This document shows positions 1-60,171 of a stretch of 64,000 nt of DNA, one piece after another (positions within the stretch are counted from its first letter, which is position 1; each line of letters starts with the position of its first letter). Location: the IMG/VR virus record IMGVR_UViG_3300031649_000001, positions 1 to 64,000 of that record, one strand, 5' to 3'. The position numbers and the translations under genes were made by a program. The notes below the pieces were generated by a model, which was given only the letters and a program-made list of their open reading frames with translations, was not told the DNA's origin and did not search any database. This stretch comes from a virus.

Positions 1-95
1 AAGGCGCCGGGTGTCTCATCCCCGTAGATGGAGCCGTCCTGCCAGCCCCGGGTGTAGTCGTGTACGGGGACGTCGAAGTCAACGGAGATCGTCAT
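1..95 (-). CDS. Partial hypothetical protein, cut by the left edge
   Basis: Leftward reading frame starting at ATG 95-93 and open to the window edge (31 codons visible). It begins MTISVDFDVPVHDYTRGW and is acidic and non-repetitive, as a genuine N terminus should be. It lies 38 nt downstream of the stop of the small secreted protein gene at 134-364 and is probably in the same leftward operon. The family is not recognised, and the C-terminal part is missing from the window. Confidence 0.5.
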   Translation of the reverse strand, partial: MTISVDFDVPVHDYTRGWQDGSIYGDETPGA

Positions 96-108
96 GTCGG
101 CATTGTCC

Positions 109-128
109 CGGGCGGGCGCCCGGCCGGG
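109..128. repeat. Copy of the GC-rich palindromic element
   Basis: Run of alternating CCGGGCGGGC and GCCCGGCCGGG blocks between the two leftward genes. It matches the dispersed hyper-GC element seen at many sites in this window. Confidence 0.5.
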
Positions 129-133
129 TTCAC

Positions 134-364
134 CTATGCGATGAACTGCGCAGATACGGGCGGACCGCCCTCCTGTGCTTCCCGCTGAGGAGGCACGGCG
201 GAGGCCCCGGGCGCCGGGGTCGCGGTGGCGCTGCGCGACGGCGGGACGGACTCCTGGGAGCTGCTGGCGGTACACGACACGGCCAGCGCGAACAGCGGCG
301 CGCCGATGACCATCACGCAGCCCGCGCCGAACAGCGCGGATGCGACCGGGTCACGTCGTGACAT
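134..364 (-). CDS. Small exported or membrane-anchored protein (76 aa)
   Basis: Starts at ATG 364-362 behind a purine-rich AAGGGGGGAG. Residues about 8-32 form one hydrophobic segment ending in LAVSC, followed by a Ser/Pro/Thr/Ala-rich tail. This could be a lipoprotein with an imperfect lipobox or a protein with a single N-terminal membrane anchor. It follows the RepL-like gene by 17 nt on the same strand, so the two are probably co-transcribed. No family is recognised; a role at the cell surface is only an inference from the segment. Confidence 0.6.
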   Translation of the reverse strand: MSRRDPVASALFGAGCVMVIGAPLFALAVSCTASSSQESVPPSRSATATPAPGASAVPPQREAQEGGPPVSAQFIA

Positions 365-14868: not shown

Positions 14869-15588
14869 GTGTCTGAATCCACGCTCAACCGCACCACCAA
14901 AACGACAGCGATCAGCTACCTGCTCGGCGTCCCGCTGGCCCGGACCACCCGCGCGGTGATACTGGCCATCGGCGGCATCAAGGGCGGCATCGGCAAGTCC
15001 ACCACGGCCATCTACCTGGCCTACGTGTGGGCGGCCATGGGCCTCAAGGTGCTCATCATCGACGCCGACCCCAAGTCCGGCACCAGCCGGAAATGGAACC
15101 GGCGCGCCAACGAGCGCGTCGCTCAGGGGCGCGGCGAGAAGCTGCCCTTCACCGTCAAGACCCACCCCTCCGAGGACCTGGAGGAGCGGATCCTGGATGA
15201 GGGCTGGCACGAAGAGTTCGACCTGATCATCGTCGACACGGGCGGCGACAACGACCGCATCTTGCAGGCCGCGTACCGCATCGCGGACTACATGCTGCTC
15301 ACCGCCAGCCCCAGCCCTGTTGACCTGGACACGCTTGCCGACTCTGCGCGGACCGCGATCGGCAAGACAGAAGCACGGGACATCCCGGCGTCCATCCTCC
15401 TCACCGGCGTGAAGTCGTCGCGTATGGCGGAGGACGCCAAGACCGAGATGCGCAAGGCAGGCATCCCCGTGCTGTCCAACGTCGTGAAGCACCGCACCGC
15501 CTACCAGCTTGCGTACACGGAGTCGGTGAAGGGGTTCCACGACTACCCCGCCGTCCAGCATGAGCTGGACGCACCCCGAGAGGAATAA
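14869..15588 (+). CDS. parA: ParA-type partition ATPase (239 aa)
   Basis: GTG 14869 behind AGAGAAGAGA. Deviant Walker A KGGIGKST at residues 38-45 with the signature lysine, an A' motif IIDADPKSG (63-71) and a Walker B region DLIIVDTGG (about 120-128). The length is typical of short plasmid (type Ib) ParA proteins without an N-terminal helix-turn-helix. It should move or tether plasmid copies over the nucleoid. The small RHH gene 6 nt downstream is the expected centromere-binding partner. Confidence 0.9.
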   Translation: MSESTLNRTTKTTAISYLLGVPLARTTRAVILAIGGIKGGIGKSTTAIYLAYVWAAMGLKVLIIDADPKSGTSRKWNRRANERVAQGRGEKLPFTVKTHPSEDLEERILDEGWHEEFDLIIVDTGGDNDRILQAAYRIADYMLLTASPSPVDLDTLADSARTAIGKTEARDIPASILLTGVKSSRMAEDAKTEMRKAGIPVLSNVVKHRTAYQLAYTESVKGFHDYPAVQHELDAPREE

Positions 15589-23983: not shown

Positions 23984-24799
23984 ATGACCCCCAAGACGGC
24001 CGCCGCGCCCGACACGGACGCCAACCTCCACTCCCTCCTGGAGAAGCTGGAGCGCTGGCCCCTGAGCAAGCTGACCCAGTTCCCCGGCAACCCCAACGAG
24101 GGCGACGTGGACGCCATCGCGGAGTCGCTGGCGGAGAACGGCCTGTTCGAGCCGATCATCGTCCAGCGCTCCACCGGCCACATCCTCAGCCACAACCACG
24201 TCACGCAGGCCGCCGAGCGCCTGGGCTGGTCCCACCTGGACGTGATCCCCGTGGATGTGGACGACCAGCGCGCCAAAAAGATCGTCGCCGCCGCCAACCG
24301 CACCGCCGAACTCAGCACCCGCAACGACTTCCTGCTCTACGAACTCCTCGCCGACATCGAGGACCTGGAGGGCACCGGCTACGACGACGTCTTCCTTGAG
24401 GAGCTGACCGCCCGCGTGGAGCCGGAGCTGCCCGAGGTCGGCGAAGAGGACGACGACGGGGGCGTGGTGATGGAGGCCGGGCCGTCCGGCGCCCACTACG
24501 CCGAGACCCCCGAGCAGGAGAGCACCCGGGGCAACCGCGTCGCCGGGGAACAGTCCCTCGCCGCCAAGGGCCTCGCCGAGATGGTGTTCGTGATGGAGGT
24601 CGACGCCAAGTCCCAGCTCCTGCTGGACATCGAGGCCATGCGCGAGCACCTCGGCGACCGGCCCACCGGCCCCCTGGTGTGCGACGCCGTCCGTATCGCC
24701 AACGTTGTCCTTGAGGCCGCCAAGCACGACAGCCCCCCGCTGGAGTGGGGCAAGATCCTCGGGCAGGCCGCCATCCGCGTGGACGGAGACGCCGCATGA
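23984..24799 (+). CDS. ParB-like nuclease-fold protein (271 aa)
   Basis: ATG 23984. Residues about 25-105 have ParB N-domain features: PLSKLTQFPGNPNEGDV, AIAESLAENGLFEPIIVQ, GHILSHNHVTQAAERLGW (in place of G.HR..A), IPVDVDDQRAKKIVAAAN. The rest is acidic and helical. In phages such proteins are often encoded next to DNA-modification genes; here it opens the operon with the exonuclease, glycosyltransferase and TET-like enzyme. It overlaps the next gene by ATGA. Confidence 0.7.
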   Translation: MTPKTAAAPDTDANLHSLLEKLERWPLSKLTQFPGNPNEGDVDAIAESLAENGLFEPIIVQRSTGHILSHNHVTQAAERLGWSHLDVIPVDVDDQRAKKIVAAANRTAELSTRNDFLLYELLADIEDLEGTGYDDVFLEELTARVEPELPEVGEEDDDGGVVMEAGPSGAHYAETPEQESTRGNRVAGEQSLAAKGLAEMVFVMEVDAKSQLLLDIEAMREHLGDRPTGPLVCDAVRIANVVLEAAKHDSPPLEWGKILGQAAIRVDGDAA

Positions 24800-25362
24800 G
24801 CGCCGTCACCCTGGACCGCGTCTTCTACGACTTCGAGTTCCTGGAGGACGGCGAGCGCATCGGCCCCGTCAGCTTCGGCGGCATCACCCAGCACGGCGAC
24901 ACCCTGTACGTGGTCAACGCCGACCTGGACGAACGCGCCGTCGCCACCCACGACTGGCTCGGGGAGCACGTGTGGCCGTTCCTGCCCACCGTGGAGTGCA
25001 AGACCGGCTGCCGGTGCATGCAGAACGGGCGCGGCCACCTGGACCGCGACCACCCCGACGTCCGCCCGCTCTCCCAGTTCCGGCGCACCGTGGACGCCTT
25101 CATGCTCAAGGCCGGACCGGCGGAGCTGTGGGCCGACTACGGCGCCTACGACCACGTAGCCCTCAGCCAGCTCTACGGCTCCATGATCCTGCTCCCGCCG
25201 TACATGCCCCGCTTCACCCACGACATCCAGCAGGAAGCCGCCCGCCTGGGCTTCACGGATGCCGAGCTGCCGCAGCCCGGCCCCGAAGGCGAACACCACG
25301 CCCTCAACGACGCGCGGCTGGTCCGTGCCCGCTGGCACTTCCTCAAGGGCATCCCGTCATGA
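24796..25362 (+). CDS. DEDD-family 3'-5' exonuclease (188 aa)
   Basis: ATG 24796. Motif I YDFEF (D12, E14), motif II AELWADYGAYDHVALS with a central Asp, and motif III EHHALNDARL (His and Asp) give the DEDDh set of the Rv2179c-like exoribonuclease group. The length is normal for that family. A Cys-rich insert (ECKTGCRCMQNG) lies between motifs I and II. It could trim RNA or DNA ends during phage growth; the substrate is not known. Confidence 0.75.
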   Translation: MSAVTLDRVFYDFEFLEDGERIGPVSFGGITQHGDTLYVVNADLDERAVATHDWLGEHVWPFLPTVECKTGCRCMQNGRGHLDRDHPDVRPLSQFRRTVDAFMLKAGPAELWADYGAYDHVALSQLYGSMILLPPYMPRFTHDIQQEAARLGFTDAELPQPGPEGEHHALNDARLVRARWHFLKGIPS

Positions 25363-25658
25363 CGCCCGGCCGCCCGGCCGCCCGCCCGGCCGGGCTCTAC
25401 ATCCATCGGCCCACCAAGGTCCGCGCCATGGTGTGGACCGGCGACAACCTGCCGGAGCTGTGCTCGTTCTTCGGGCGCGTCCTCATGCTCGGCGTCCTGC
25501 CCGGCGTGGGCCCGTGCATCCCGCTGGCCACCCGCTGCGGCACCGTCTACGCCGCCCCCGGCGACGTCCTGGTCATGGACGAGCACGGCCGCCTGTACCC
25601 CGTCCCCGACGACGAGTTCGCCGTCACCCACCGCCTCAAGGAGGAGCAGCCCGCATGA
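25359..25658 (+). CDS. Conserved phage protein (99 aa) with in-frame GC element
   Basis: ATG 25359 (ATGA overlap). GLYIHRPTKVRAMVW, IPLATRCGTVYAAPGDVLVM and HGRLYPVPDDEFAVTH match a small beta-rich protein family common in phages ('GD.ii.g..Ge.yp...d.F...Y'). Residues 3-12 (PGRPAARPAG) are encoded by a copy of the GC-rich palindrome and are absent from the usual family start. Confidence 0.6.
   Translation: MTPGRPAARPAGLYIHRPTKVRAMVWTGDNLPELCSFFGRVLMLGVLPGVGPCIPLATRCGTVYAAPGDVLVMDEHGRLYPVPDDEFAVTHRLKEEQPA
25364..25395. repeat. GC-rich palindromic element inside a gene start
   Basis: GCCCGGCCGCCCGGCCGCCC and its continuation, read in frame as GRPAARPAG at the start of the 25359 protein. Confidence 0.75.
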
Positions 25659-25945
25659 TGACCAGCCCGCCCGGCCGCCCGCCCGCCCGGCCTCCCGTCG
25701 TACGGATGCCGAAGTTCACCCCCGAGCAGCGCGAACGCATCGGCGCCGCCATCGACGCCCTGCTCAAGCGGATCCGGGAGGCGCTGCGCCCCCTTGTCCA
25801 GCTCGTACGCCAGACCGGCGAGGCCATCGCCGACGCTGCCGCCGCCGTCCGCCAGTACGCCGACACGGTCAACCGGCGCCGCCCCGACCGCCCCGCCTGG
25901 GCCAGCCCCTACGGCCCGGCCCCCCGCCCCCACAGGAGCCGCTGA
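25655..25945 (+). CDS. Hypothetical protein with in-frame GC element (96 aa)
   Basis: ATG 25655 behind AAGGAGGAG. The first 17 residues (SPPGRPPARPP) come from a second GC element at 25666-25692. Then follows a basic region and a helix (RIREALRPLVQLVRQTGEAI) with coiled-coil character. The function is unknown. Confidence 0.55.
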   Translation: MMTSPPGRPPARPPVVRMPKFTPEQRERIGAAIDALLKRIREALRPLVQLVRQTGEAIADAAAAVRQYADTVNRRRPDRPAWASPYGPAPRPHRSR

Positions 25946-26718
25946 TGACCAACCTCCGCGCCACCGACGACGGCCGCCGCTACGGCGTGTACTGCATCAG
26001 CGCCGGACGCCCCGCCAACGTCCCCGCCATGCAGGCCCTGTTCGCCCCCGACCCCATCACCTGGGTCGTGCCGTACCCCGAGCACCACGACTACACCGCC
26101 GCCGGAGCGGACTTCACCCTCGCCGTCATCGACCCGCCCCCCGGCGAGTTCGCCCTGTCCGCCGCCCGCAACGCCGCCCTGCTCCACGCCACCCAGCAGG
26201 GGGCCGTCTGCATCCAGACCGACGACGACTGCAAGGGCTTCAAGCACGTCAGCGACGCCCACCCCAAGGGGCGCCCCGCCCCCTGGGTCCAGCTCCGCGC
26301 CGCCCTCCTCAACGTCCTGGACGGCACCGTCCACCTGGCGGGCGTCCCGCCCACCGACAACGCCTACTTCGCGCGCGGCCGGGTCCTGGACTACGGCTTC
26401 GTCATCGGCTCCCTGTGCGCCGCCGACACCTACGAGCCCCGCTGGGACCAGGGCCTGCCCTTCAAGGAGGACTACGACTACACCTGCGCCCACCTGGACG
26501 CCTACGGCAAGGTTGCCCGGCTGGACATGTACATCGCCAGCTACCAGCACTACAGCAACCGGGGCGGTGCCGTGGCCAACCGGACCCCCGGCGCGGAGAT
26601 GGGCCTCGTCAACACGCTCACCGAGCGCTGGCCCCAGTACCTCAAGCCGCACCCCAAGCGCATCGGCGAGCTGTCCTTCATCCCGCGCCCCCAGCGCCAC
26701 CGCACCCCTACCGCCTGA
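25945..26718 (+). CDS. TET-associated glycosyltransferase-like protein (257 aa)
   Basis: ATG 25945 overlaps the previous stop. It has a GT-A-like beginning (YGVYCISAGRP, ITWVVPYPEHHDY), then LSAARNAALLHA, followed by CIQTDDDCKGF, whose D93-D95 form the DxD metal/sugar-nucleotide site; GLPFKEDYDYTCAHL follows as the second acidic element. This order matches glycosyltransferases found beside TET/JBP dioxygenases in phages, which add sugar to 5-hydroxymethylcytosine. The TET-like gene is 390 nt downstream. The sugar donor cannot be read from the sequence. Confidence 0.7.
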   Translation: MTNLRATDDGRRYGVYCISAGRPANVPAMQALFAPDPITWVVPYPEHHDYTAAGADFTLAVIDPPPGEFALSAARNAALLHATQQGAVCIQTDDDCKGFKHVSDAHPKGRPAPWVQLRAALLNVLDGTVHLAGVPPTDNAYFARGRVLDYGFVIGSLCAADTYEPRWDQGLPFKEDYDYTCAHLDAYGKVARLDMYIASYQHYSNRGGAVANRTPGAEMGLVNTLTERWPQYLKPHPKRIGELSFIPRPQRHRTPTA

Positions 26719-26731
26719 AAGAAGACCCCGC

Positions 26732-27115
26732 ATGATCGAGTGGACCGGCGTTCTCGCCCTCCTGGACAAGCCCACCGGCGACGGCCGCGCGCTTGCCACC
26801 CCCGAACGCCTGCTCTCCCGGCCGCTCCCCCTGCCGCTGTTCACCCTTGACGGCCCCGTCGGCTCCATCAACCAACTGTCCATCCACGGGGATCAGCTCC
26901 GGGCGGAGGGCACCGCCCGCGACGGCATCCTCACCCCGGAGCGCCCCGAACTCCCGGTCGGCCTGGACGCCGACCAGACCGAGTACGAAGCCTTCGGCCA
27001 GGGCGTCATCTTCACCCGCTGGCGCATCGTCGGCGCCACGCTCCTCACCGACGCCACGGCGTCGGGGCCGTGGCCGGAGGCCGTGATCCGCCTGAAGGAG
27101 GACGGCCGTGATTGA
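26732..27115 (+). CDS. Short prohead-protease-like protein (127 aa)
   Basis: ATG 26732 behind AAAGAAGACC. It follows the N-terminal protease-domain pattern of the 38437-42072 protein: WTGVLALLDKPTGDGRALATPE then RPLPLPLF, ending with RWRIVGATLLTDA and PEAVIRL. The middle part carrying the expected catalytic His and Ser is missing, so it is unlikely to be an active protease. It might have been recruited to another task, since it sits between the glycosyltransferase and the TET-like enzyme. It overlaps the next gene by 8 nt. Confidence 0.55.
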   Translation: MIEWTGVLALLDKPTGDGRALATPERLLSRPLPLPLFTLDGPVGSINQLSIHGDQLRAEGTARDGILTPERPELPVGLDADQTEYEAFGQGVIFTRWRIVGATLLTDATASGPWPEAVIRLKEDGRD

Positions 27116-28049
27116 GGCCCGCCTGCGCACCCGCATCCCCTCAGCCGAGCTGGAGGCCAAGGTCGGCAAGATCCTCGGGCCCGAGGACTTCAACATGCTG
27201 ATCACCGGCCCGGCCAAGCTCCTCAAGCCCAACGGCCAGCCGCTGGTCATCTACCTGCCCGGCGCCCTCAGCGAGGAGGCCGACCTTCCCGGTGTGTACG
27301 AGACCCTCCACTCCCTGAAGTCCACGAAGACCGAGAACCGCGGAACGGCCTCCGGCTCACGCCGCGTCAAGTCCGGCTCCGGCAACAAGAGCCGCGCCCT
27401 CCCGGTCCCGTCCGCCATCATCGGCGCGTTCGACTCCGCCGGACACCAGAAGTACTGCCGCCTCACCGCCTGGACCGGCGCCAACCTGCCCCAGTGGGAG
27501 ATGCTGCGCCCGTTCCTCCAGGGCGTGGCCCGCCACTTCGAGGCCCGGCTGCCCGACCGGTACGCCGTGCAGATGCGTGAGGTCGCCGCCACCTACCCGG
27601 AGTGGGTGGTGCCCGGCACCCCGTTCACCACGGTCACCGTCAACAACACCTACCCCACCGGCGTCCACCAGGACGCGGGCGACCTGGAGTCCGGCTTCTC
27701 CACCCTGGCCTGCCTGCGGCGCGGCTCCTACACCGGCGGCCAGCTCGTCTTCCCCAAGTACCGGGTCGCCCTCGACATGCGCCACGGCGACCTGGCCCTG
27801 ATCGACGCCCACGAGCACCACGGGAACACGGCGATCTTCTGCGAGTGCGGCCAGCGCCGCAACGGCATGTGCGAGACCTGCGGAGCCGAGCGGATCAGCG
27901 TCGTCAGCTACTTCCGCGCCAACATGATCAAGTGCGGCAGCTACCCGGAGGAGACCGGCAAGGCCGTCAGCAGCGTGGAGGCCCGCAACCGCAAGCGGCT
28001 CGCTGCCGAGATCGACGCCGCCGACACCCCCGCCGAGGTGACCACATGA
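27108..28049 (+). CDS. TET/JBP-family 2OG-Fe(II) dioxygenase (313 aa)
   Basis: GTG 27108 behind GAGGACGG. Double-stranded beta-helix core: VNNTYPTGVHQDAGD with iron ligands H187 and D189, RGSYTGGQLVFPKYRVA, GDLALIDAHEHHGNT with the distal ligand H237 or H238, and RISVVSYFR with the 2-oxoglutarate arginine (R262 or R270). This is the signature of TET/JBP enzymes, which oxidise the methyl group of 5-methylcytosine. A Cys-rich insertion (C245, C247, C255, C258) between the last His and R262 may hold zinc. Phage TETs act before glycosylation, consistent with the upstream GT gene. No cytosine methyltransferase is in the window. Confidence 0.82.
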   Translation: MIEARLRTRIPSAELEAKVGKILGPEDFNMLITGPAKLLKPNGQPLVIYLPGALSEEADLPGVYETLHSLKSTKTENRGTASGSRRVKSGSGNKSRALPVPSAIIGAFDSAGHQKYCRLTAWTGANLPQWEMLRPFLQGVARHFEARLPDRYAVQMREVAATYPEWVVPGTPFTTVTVNNTYPTGVHQDAGDLESGFSTLACLRRGSYTGGQLVFPKYRVALDMRHGDLALIDAHEHHGNTAIFCECGQRRNGMCETCGAERISVVSYFRANMIKCGSYPEETGKAVSSVEARNRKRLAAEIDAADTPAEVTT

Positions 28050-28222
28050 ACGAGGCCCTGCCCGCGCTGCCGCCCGCCCGCACCGGCATCCTGGACGACC
28101 TCTGCGACCGGCTCACCACCGAGTACCTGCGCCCCGCCCTGCGCGAGGCAGGCATCCCCGACGCCGACCAGTACCGGTTCTTCATCCCCGCAGACGACAC
28201 CCCGGCGGAGGCGACCTCATGA
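28046..28222 (+). CDS. Tiny hypothetical protein (58 aa)
   Basis: ATG 28046 in an ATGA overlap with the TET-like gene, ribosome site GAGG. One helix (ILDDLCDRLTTEYLRPAL), then a short acidic tail. It is translationally coupled and may be an accessory subunit; the function is unknown. Confidence 0.55.
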   Translation: MNEALPALPPARTGILDDLCDRLTTEYLRPALREAGIPDADQYRFFIPADDTPAEATS

Positions 28223-58929: not shown

Positions 58930-60171
58930 ATGGCCGCCAAGACCACCGCCACCGTCGAGACCACCATCACCACCCTGACCGGCGAGGCCTTCGCGACCGT
59001 CGGCTGGTCCACCAGCCGCACCAAGGTAGACGAGGTCCGCGAGTACAAGTGGACCGCCCCCCACGCCCTCAAGGTGTGGCGCTTCGCCCGCATGGACGAC
59101 CAGTGGTTCGGCTTCTGCTGGAAGTGCGACGGCGCCGGGAACATCGGCTACGGCCCCGACAACGGCGTCTGCTGGGAGTGCTCCGGCCACGGCCTCCGCG
59201 ACTACTGGACGGTCGGCGAGGAGTTCGACACCAAGCTCCGCAACATCGAGCGCTCCGTGAAGGCCGAGTCCACCAAGCAGGCCAAGGCTATCGCCGCCCG
59301 CCACGCCGAGATCGCCGAGTGGCGCGCCGCCAACCCCGAGCTGATCACCTGGGCCGAGGCCAAGACCCCCACCGGCACCGAGCCCCACGAGGTCCTGACC
59401 GGAGAGACCCAGGACGTGTACGACGGCTACACCCCCAACGTCCAGTACGCCATCCGCTGCGTCCGCTACGGCACCGCCCTGGACCGCAAGCTCACCGGCC
59501 TGCTCCGCAAGGTGATCGCCGACGAGGCCAACGCCCCGGCCGTCAAGCCCAGCCGCCACGCCGGTGCGGAGGGCGACCGCCCGACCATCACCGGCAAGGT
59601 CGTCATGTGGCGCAACAACGAGGAGGACGGCTACCTCACCGTCAAGGTGGAGGGCGAGGGCGCCGACACCGGCATCACCTTCTTCACCAACACCAGTTCC
59701 GCCTCCGCCTACGAGCTGGAGGAGGGCGACCTGGTGATGGTCAAGGCGACCATTAAGCGCAACGAGGTGTACCGGGTGACCGGCCAGAAGTCGGACCGCG
59801 TCGGCCGCGCCGTCTTCACCAAGGTCGACGAGATCCCCGCCCCCGCCGCGCCGGTCGCCACGGTCGCTGAGACGGCCCCGCAGGCGCCGGTTGAGACCCC
59901 GGCCCCGGCCGCCCCCGCCAGCGAGCCCACGACCCCGCAGAGCGACGCCACGCCCGTCCGCAAGACCGGCCGCCGCGCAGCCCAGGGCGCGTCCTCCGTG
60001 GACGGCTGGGAGCTGCTCTACGACAAGCCCAAGGCGGGCGCCGAGGTGGTCCGCAAGGACGGCCGCTACGCCCTCGCCTGCAAGACCCACCGCACCCTCC
60101 ACCACCTGGACCGCCTCTCCGACGAGGGCAAGGTCCGCAAGGCGGGCGGCTGGTGCACCGAGTGCCACTGA
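58930..60171 (+). CDS. Zinc-finger and OB-fold-like protein (413 aa)
   Basis: ATG 58930 behind GAGGAG. Residues about 65-95 have CWKCDGAGNIGYG and CWECSGHG, a DnaJ-type zinc finger. A helical part follows (AESTKQAKAIAARHAEIAEW), then a beta-barrel-like section (ITGKVVMWRNNEEDGYLTV, LVMVKATIKRNEVY), a Pro/Ala-rich linker and a C-terminal finger (LACKTH...WCTECH). It probably binds nucleic acid; no enzyme motif is seen. First gene behind its promoter. Confidence 0.65.
   Translation: MAAKTTATVETTITTLTGEAFATVGWSTSRTKVDEVREYKWTAPHALKVWRFARMDDQWFGFCWKCDGAGNIGYGPDNGVCWECSGHGLRDYWTVGEEFDTKLRNIERSVKAESTKQAKAIAARHAEIAEWRAANPELITWAEAKTPTGTEPHEVLTGETQDVYDGYTPNVQYAIRCVRYGTALDRKLTGLLRKVIADEANAPAVKPSRHAGAEGDRPTITGKVVMWRNNEEDGYLTVKVEGEGADTGITFFTNTSSASAYELEEGDLVMVKATIKRNEVYRVTGQKSDRVGRAVFTKVDEIPAPAAPVATVAETAPQAPVETPAPAAPASEPTTPQSDATPVRKTGRRAAQGASSVDGWELLYDKPKAGAEVVRKDGRYALACKTHRTLHHLDRLSDEGKVRKAGGWCTECH

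What the first reader, a model, noticed from the sequence alone, without database searches (positions are those of the whole stretch)
23984..28049. TET/JBP dioxygenase with a TET-associated glycosyltransferase: a DNA hypermodification block
The 27108 protein has the HxD, distal His and Arg set of TET/JBP 2OG-Fe(II) dioxygenases, and the 25945 protein has the AARN and DDD elements of glycosyltransferases that accompany them. Phage TET enzymes are known to oxidise 5-methylcytosine so that sugars can be attached. The same overlapping operon carries a ParB-like protein, a DEDD exonuclease and small proteins. No C5-cytosine methyltransferase is present in the window; it must be elsewhere in the element, or be supplied by the host.
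Basis: partly seen in the sequence, partly recalled or inferred. Interest (0 to 1): 0.85.

Follow-up and report, generated by a model that had tools for sequence, protein, structure and literature searches.

The report
Phage sugar-coating genes for DNA bases
This bacterial virus carries a small gene block that very probably oxidises a base in its own DNA and attaches a sugar to it; unlike the textbook phage TET systems it has no cytosine methyltransferase, as is true of nearly all its relatives, so the base being decorated may be thymine rather than methylated cytosine.

Summary
27108-28049 is a TET/JBP dioxygenase (Pfam 2.6e-18; AlphaFold pLDDT 94.9; best PDB folds CcTET, NgTET1, TET2) with H187, D189, H238 and R262 conserved. 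25945-26718 is a divergent TAGT-like glycosyltransferase, below the Pfam cut-off but tied to TAGT by profile (99.8%) and fold. A ParB-like gene starts the overlapping operon.

No C5-cytosine methyltransferase was found in the 111-kb record or in 80 contigs with the same TET clade, whereas a sister clade has one in 66 of 71 loci. One prophage copy (Haloechinothrix alba) sits in a draft host genome with none detected. On the TET tree the glycosyltransferase is repeatedly exchanged with amino acid:DNA transferase plus P-loop kinase, enzyme types known from thymidine hypermodification.

I favour T -> 5hmU -> glycosyl-5hmU, a base-J-like product (about 0.58). Against this, D192 matches the residue that reads the cytosine amino group in NgTET1 and CMD1, one Actinomadura locus has a C5-methyltransferase nearby, and most hosts checked could supply 5mC. 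Mass spectrometry must decide. A ParB-TET-kinase "thymidine hypermodification" set was already proposed for phage Tonitrus, so this is a new variant of a known kind.

The parts
23984..24799 (+). ParB-like protein (N-terminal ParB/Srx-type domain, 271 aa); core partner of the TET clade. Hits to 'DNA methyltransferase' families cover only its ParB part.
   Evidence: PHROG ParB-like 1.9e-35; Pfam ParB_N 0.0084, below cut-off; PADLOC MTase_II match only over residues 20-158; ParB-like HMM hit in 68 of 80 clade A loci against 2 of 71 in the clade with C5-MTase
24796..25362 (+). DEDD 3'-5' exonuclease (Rv2179c-like / RNase H-like); in the operon but not core
   Evidence: Pfam PF16473 4.6e-07, PHROG RNase H 2.7e-34; near the TET in few relatives
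25359..25658 (+). small protein, unknown function
   Evidence: PHROG 1810 4.5e-07, unknown function
25655..25945 (+). small protein, unknown function
   Evidence: ORF with GC3 0.93 and AGGAGG-type ribosome site; 51% identical homologue in L005
25945..26718 (+). divergent TAGT-like, GT-A-like glycosyltransferase (RN75-76, DDD93-95, KED174-176)
   Evidence: Pfam TAGT E 0.025, below cut-off; PHROG T4-type alpha-glucosyltransferase 4e-4; profile-profile with TAGT-matching relatives 99.8%, 1.4e-29; AF2 pLDDT 90.8; best viral fold match a TET-associated glycosyltransferase, 7.5e-19
26732..27115 (+). small protein inserted between GT and TET; not found in the 88%-identical relative
   Evidence: no homologue in L005 by blastp; weak PHROG 21470 2.4e-06
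27108..28049 (+). TET/JBP 2OG-Fe(II) dioxygenase, 313 aa; H187, D189, H238 (metal), R262/S264 (2OG), D192, Y268, R270 (base pocket); Cys-rich insert C245/C247/C255/C258
   Evidence: Pfam 2.6e-18; AF2 pLDDT 94.9; top PDB folds CcTET, NgTET1, TET2; residue conservation; Cys positions
28046..28222 (+). short ORF overlapping the TET stop; unknown
   Evidence: ORF prediction and 4-bp overlap

Best explanation
The block is a post-replicative DNA hypermodification operon of a roughly 111-kb actinobacterial phage or phage-plasmid. The TET/JBP enzyme oxidises the C5-methyl group of a pyrimidine in phage DNA to 5-hydroxymethyl (fold and residues shown, activity inferred). The TAGT-like enzyme then transfers a sugar to that hydroxyl (family and fold shown; acceptor and sugar inferred). 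The ParB-like protein probably loads or guides the enzymes on DNA in place of a site-specific methyltransferase (inferred from co-occurrence only). The base is most likely thymine, T -> 5hmU -> glycosyl-5hmU, a base-J-like product, because neither the phage nor almost any member of this TET clade carries a C5-cytosine methyltransferase. The expected benefit is resistance to host restriction (inferred).
For: TET and GT identity. No C5-MTase (PF00145) in the 111-kb record, no motif IV/VI pair in any frame, no thymidylate-synthase-type pyrimidine methylase or hydroxymethylase. Clade A: PF00145 in 0 of 80 contigs, about 2.3 Mb, and in 0 of 6 isolate phages. Sister clade B: C5-MTase in 66 of 71 loci and 8 of 8 contigs scanned with PF00145. 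The two clades are separated by one branch, SH-aLRT 100. Within clade A, GT (23 loci) and ADDT (44) are nearly exclusive (2 shared), and the GT/ADDT state changes at least 14 times among 47 tips of the TET tree, so both finishing modules appear to use the same TET product. ADDT and Ploopntkinase3 were identified by Pfam. In phages M6, ViI and phiW-14 a 5hmdU DNA kinase and downstream transferases act on 5hmdU (PMC6449724). Haloechinothrix alba prophage L181 has ParB-GT-TET in 4-bp overlaps before a terminase-like gene, and its host draft genome has no PF00145 match even at E 1. A ParB + tet-like JBP + aGPT-PPlase2 + 5hmU kinase set in phage Tonitrus has been proposed as a thymidine hypermodification system (PMC11955845).
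Against: D192, at HxD+3, is the position whose Asp/Asn bonds the N4 amino group of 5mC in NgTET1, TET2 and CMD1, and the D192/R270 pair matches CMD1 Asp350/Arg418; docking in CMD1 disfavoured thymine (PMC7854593, PMC11040006). But phages S-CBWM1 and C48C1 of the clade have N or S there. Actinomadura rayongensis locus L182 has a C5-MTase about 3 kb upstream of a clade A TET. Three of four actinobacterial host genomes examined do have C5-MTases. P-loop kinases and TAGT-type GTs also occur beside C5-MTase-linked TETs (27 and 10 of 71), so only ADDT distinguishes the clades. No activity was measured.
Confidence: 0.58

Rival explanations
1. The same enzymes act on 5-methylcytosine that the host's own cytosine methyltransferase puts on phage DNA: 5mC -> 5hmC -> glycosyl-5hmC.
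For: The D192/R270 pocket equals that of CMD1, a 5mC/C reader. Hosts of three related actinobacterial (pro)phages encode C5-MTases. Phage TET systems that include a C5-MTase are described as making glycosylated cytosine (PMC12730594).
Against: Haloechinothrix alba carries the same ParB-GT-TET cassette and no PF00145 match was found in its draft genome. The clade spans phages of Pelagibacter, Nonlabens, Caulobacter, Synechococcus and Stenotrophomonas, so a shared host 5mC source is unlikely. Host methylation would modify only sparse sites.
Confidence: 0.24
2. A cytosine-C5 methyltransferase too diverged for PF00145 exists elsewhere in the phage, and the pathway is the ordinary 5mC one.
For: Many genes of the element are unassigned. 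One clade A locus, L182, does have a linked C5-MTase with a radical SAM gene.
Against: No PF00145, no match to an HMM of clade B phage C5-MTases, and no PCQ...ENV motif pair in the element. In the whole-contig scans it was missing from 80 of 80 clade A contigs. No conserved unassigned methyltransferase cluster lies beside the TET.
Confidence: 0.1
3. The dioxygenase or the glycosyltransferase acts on something other than DNA bases (RNA, protein, envelope sugar), and their adjacency is incidental.
For: No activity is known for either protein; GT-A-type enzymes have many acceptors.
Against: The ParB, GT and TET genes lie together in G000, G001, G003 and the H. alba prophage and the set recurs across the clade. 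All 26 best PDB matches of the TET model are DNA-acting TET-family enzymes. The best viral matches of the GT include many TET-associated glycosyltransferases and a T4-type HMC glucosyltransferase.
Confidence: 0.06

Closest known systems
Phage C5-MTase + TET + glycosyltransferase cytosine hypermodification (Burke et al. 2021 PNAS, not readable here; summarised in PMC12730594)
   Same: TET/JBP oxidation of a C5-methyl group in DNA followed by TAGT-type glycosylation.
   Different: No C5-MTase in this element or in 80 clade A contigs; R270 where the C5-MTase-linked clade B studied here has D; a ParB-like gene is linked instead.
ParB / Tet-like JBP / aGPT-PPlase2 / 5hmU kinase set of Rhodococcus phage Tonitrus (PMC11955845) and the similar ParB-TET-kinase blocks of Nigel and MementoMori
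   Same: ParB-like gene plus TET/JBP near the terminase, no C5-MTase in the genome.
   Different: More distant TET (about 20-24% identity; N and L at the two base-pocket positions); kinase (with ADDT in Tonitrus) instead of glycosyltransferase.
Arthrobacter phage Lilmac1015 ParB - oxidoreductase (TET) - glycosyltransferase - deacetylase
   Same: Same ParB-TET-GT logic, no C5-MTase.
   Different: Different TET subfamily and gene order; extra glucosaminyl deacetylase gene.
Thymidine hypermodification of phages M6, ViI, phiW-14 (Lee et al. 2018, 2022; PMC6449724)
   Same: Hydroxymethyl-pyrimidine in DNA is the handle; clade A relatives carry the ADDT and kinase families.
   Different: There 5hmdU is built into DNA from the nucleotide pool; here a TET would make it in the polymer, and this element itself has no detected kinase or ADDT of these families.
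Kinetoplastid base J pathway (JBP1/2 plus J-glucosyltransferase)
   Same: If the base is thymine, the same two-step logic: TET/JBP hydroxylation of T, then glycosylation.
   Different: No J-binding or SNF2 domain found here; glycosyltransferase not compared directly; product unproven.

Membership tests
TET/JBP 2OG-Fe(II) dioxygenase family (PF12851) | Profile match above the curated cut-off | tested here: met
   66.2 bits against 34.9, E 2.6e-18
TET/JBP 2OG-Fe(II) dioxygenase family (PF12851) | HxD...H metal ligands and Arg for 2-oxoglutarate | tested here: met
   H187, D189, H238, R262 in 80 of 80 clade A sequences
TET/JBP 2OG-Fe(II) dioxygenase family (PF12851) | Double-stranded beta-helix fold closest to TET enzymes | tested here: met
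   AF2 pLDDT 94.9; top 26 PDB matches are CcTET, NgTET1, TET2, CMD1
TET/JBP 2OG-Fe(II) dioxygenase family (PF12851) | Oxidises a C5-methylpyrimidine in nucleic acid | not testable with these tools
   needs an enzyme assay or mass spectrometry
TAGT glycosyltransferases (PF20691) | Pfam gathering cut-off | tested here: not met
   15 bits against 27.5; hence called TAGT-like, not a Pfam-defined member
TAGT glycosyltransferases (PF20691) | Homology to proteins that pass the cut-off, same fold | tested here: met
   hhalign 99.8%, 1.4e-29, against a set holding L011 (4e-21 to TAGT), L014 and L057; best viral fold match TMq 0.79
TAGT glycosyltransferases (PF20691) | Linked to a TET gene | tested here: met
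   same operon; next to the TET in G001, G003 and L181
C5-MTase/TET/GT cytosine hypermodification system | C5-cytosine methyltransferase encoded with the TET | tested here: not met
Thymidine hypermodification system (M6/ViI type) | 5hmU DNA kinase and amino acid:DNA transferase | tested here: not met
   no P-loop kinase or ADDT HMM hit in the element; present in about half of the clade A relatives
Thymidine hypermodification system (M6/ViI type) | Pyrimidine hydroxymethylase at nucleotide level (PF00303 family) | tested here: not met
Base J pathway (JBP/JGT) | Acts on thymine | tested here: inconclusive
   context favours thymine; D192/R270 pocket matches a 5mC reader
ParB-like protein | ParB/Srx-type N-terminal domain | tested here: met
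   PHROG 723 1.9e-35; Pfam ParB_N sub-threshold, 16.6 bits against 26.3

The most novel reading that the evidence does not exclude
A large, widely distributed phage TET lineage oxidises thymine in DNA, is guided by a ParB-like clamp instead of a methyltransferase, and feeds exchangeable finishing modules: a TAGT-type glycosyltransferase giving base-J-like glycosyl-5hmU, or kinase plus amino acid:DNA transferase giving amino-modified thymine.
Probability: 0.42. Interest if true: 0.82.

Novelty: new variant of a known kind. Interest (0 to 1): 0.58.

Why it matters
Phage TET enzymes are usually explained as acting on 5-methylcytosine made by a neighbouring methyltransferase. Here a TET lineage with at least several hundred viral members, sampled in 80 contigs, almost never carries one. 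It is tied instead to a ParB-like protein and to interchangeable finishing enzymes. If the base is thymine, base J, so far known mainly from kinetoplastids, would have phage counterparts made by the same logic. That would give new DNA-modifying enzymes and a new target for host restriction. The question 'which base?' can be settled with one small co-expression experiment.

Tried and rejected
PDB sequence searches with the TET or its profile found no relative; only fold comparison worked. Searches of annotated plasmids for the TET and of phages for the GT gave nothing. 'DNA methyltransferase' hits of the ParB-like protein were rejected as evidence for a methyltransferase because they cover only the ParB part. 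HxD+3 as a T-versus-C discriminator: D192 is shared by clade A and clade B, so it does not separate them; R270 does, but CMD1 and CcTET, which act on 5mC, also have Arg there. Nucleotide-level hydroxymethylase (PF00303): absent from this element (Cr30 has one hit). Dinucleotide bias of the element shows no clear CpG or GpC depletion; uninformative. Key papers (Burke 2021, Iyer 2013, Lee 2018 and 2022) are not in the library. Failed or malformed calls.
Full report
What is there. The window is bases 1-64000 of a 111,261-bp IMG/VR virus record. I fetched the other 47 kb. The two ends share 243 bp, split by one 125-bp insertion in a GC-rich repeat, which suggests a complete circular or terminally redundant genome. 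Capsid, portal, terminase and tail genes and a ParA gene make it a tailed phage, possibly a phage-plasmid.

The operon. Eight genes from 23984 to 28222 run in one direction. Most overlap by 1-8 bases, with a 13-bp gap before 26732. The order is ParB-like, DEDD exonuclease, two small genes, glycosyltransferase, one small gene, TET, one small gene. Between this phage and its nearest GT-bearing relatives what is kept is ParB, then GT, then TET: G001 (88% identical TET), G003 (68%) and an H. alba prophage. Gene 26732-27115 was not found in G001.

TET. Pfam Tet_JBP gives 2.6e-18. AlphaFold with 46 relatives reaches pLDDT 94.9, and the 26 best PDB folds are all TET-family enzymes, including NgTET1 with 5mC DNA. 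H187, D189, H238 and R262 occur in every one of 80 relatives. Position 237 varies, so H238 is the distal ligand.

Glycosyltransferase. Pfam alone is sub-threshold. Aligned with its near relatives and compared with a set of relatives that includes members passing the TAGT cut-off, it gives 99.8% and 1.4e-29. The model (pLDDT 90.8) best matches viral TET-associated glycosyltransferases and, more weakly, KfiA-type GT-A enzymes. RN75-76, DDD93-95 and KED174-176 are the conserved elements. I call it TAGT-like.

No methyltransferase. PF00145 finds none in the record, nor does an HMM of phage C5-MTases, nor a motif search in six frames. PF00303, the family of nucleotide-level pyrimidine methylases and hydroxymethylases, is also absent.

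Relatives. A profile search found at least 587 TET relatives in viral contigs; 80 loci were kept. Whole-contig scans for PF00145 gave 0 of 50 and 0 of 30, about 2.3 Mb. Six isolate phages of the clade also had none. As a positive control, TETs related to Melnitz phage have a C5-MTase in 66 of 71 loci and 8 of 8 scanned contigs. The tree separates the two clades with full support. Many contigs are fragments and loci are related, so the Fisher value (2e-37) overstates independence; after removing near-copies the tree had 50 and 11 rows besides the isolates.

Partners. In clade A an HMM hit to the ParB-like family occurs in 68 of 80 loci against 2 of 71 in clade B. ADDT (amino acid:DNA transferase) is in 44 against 0, P-loop kinase in 50 against 27, and GT in 23 against 10 (Pfam names). 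Some clade A loci add FAD or PLP enzymes. GT and ADDT co-occur in only 2 loci, and the GT/ADDT state changes at least 14 times on the TET tree. The simplest reading is one oxidised base with exchangeable finishing modules. 5hmdU kinases and associated transferases are known from phages with hypermodified thymine (PMC6449724), and for phage Tonitrus a ParB/TET/aGPT-PPlase/kinase set was proposed as thymidine hypermodification (PMC11955845).

Host 5mC. A scan of GTDB genomes found the same TET clade in ten bacterial records. In Haloechinothrix alba the cassette ParB-GT-TET lies just before a terminase-like gene, and the draft host genome has no PF00145 match even at E 1. Actinomadura rayongensis, Streptomyces africanus and one further actinobacterium (G348) do have C5-MTases, and in Actinomadura one lies about 3 kb upstream of the TET. 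Host supply is therefore weakened, not excluded.

The contrary evidence. Structures show that Asn1387 of TET2, Asp234 of NgTET1 and Asp350 of CMD1 bond the cytosine amino group, while His1904, His297, Arg418 and CcTET Arg393 hold the other edge of the base (PMC7854593, PMC11040006). By motif spacing these are D192 and R270 here, the CMD1 combination, and CMD1 docking disfavoured thymine. D192 is invariant in the 80 contigs but N or S in phages S-CBWM1 and C48C1, and clade B shares the Asp. I therefore hold thymine at 0.58, not higher. I had no kinetoplastid JBP sequence to test whether JBP also has Asp there.

ParB. Its hits to 'DNA methyltransferase' families cover only the ParB part. Because it is present where the methyltransferase is missing, I infer that it may supply DNA loading or site choice. 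This rests on co-occurrence alone.

What is shown and what is inferred. Shown: gene identity, fold, conserved residues, absence of detectable methyltransferase genes, and linkage. Inferred: enzyme activity, base, sugar, ParB role and protection from restriction. Verdict: a sound finding with a doubtful substrate assignment; a new variant of a known kind with a cheap decisive test.

Noticed in passing
window 58930-60171; record 93790-94665, 105035-106063, 106793-107278, 107544-108056, 108193-108936, 109206-109760: Seven proteins share a C-terminal ~55-aa domain 'GWELLYDKPK..AEVGRR..YALICK.HGHAH.L.RL..ER..RKAGGWCPSC', a possible zinc-binding module fused to different N-termini.
   Followed up: no
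window 1-243 and record 110894-111261: The record ends share a 243-bp direct repeat interrupted by a 125-bp insertion within a CCGG-rich repeat, suggesting a complete genome.
   Followed up: partly
L182:3069-5036: In Actinomadura rayongensis a radical SAM gene and a C5-cytosine methyltransferase lie directly adjacent, upstream of ParB - GT-B-type glycosyltransferase - TET; possibly a separate or combined modification module.
   Followed up: partly
window 27840-27881 (TET residues 245-258): Cys-rich insert C-x-C-x7-C-x2-C just before the 2OG-binding Arg in the actinophage TETs, possibly a structural zinc site; missing in the marine relatives aligned.
   Followed up: no
L012 (Caulobacter phage Cr30) 8398-17288: Cr30 combines TET, ADDT, P-loop kinase and a TAGT-like GT without any C5-MTase; a cultured phage suited to nucleoside analysis.
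   Followed up: partly
window 14869-15588: ParA-like ATPase (PHROG 1e-30), consistent with plasmid-like maintenance; an integrase-like protein lies at record 67278-68237 (weak, 0.003).
   Followed up: no
GenBank records of Nigel, Adawi, MementoMori and others (H61-H73): TET/JBP proteins of actinobacteriophages are labelled 'queuine tRNA-ribosyltransferase' in several RefSeq records, probably a propagated misannotation.
   Followed up: no
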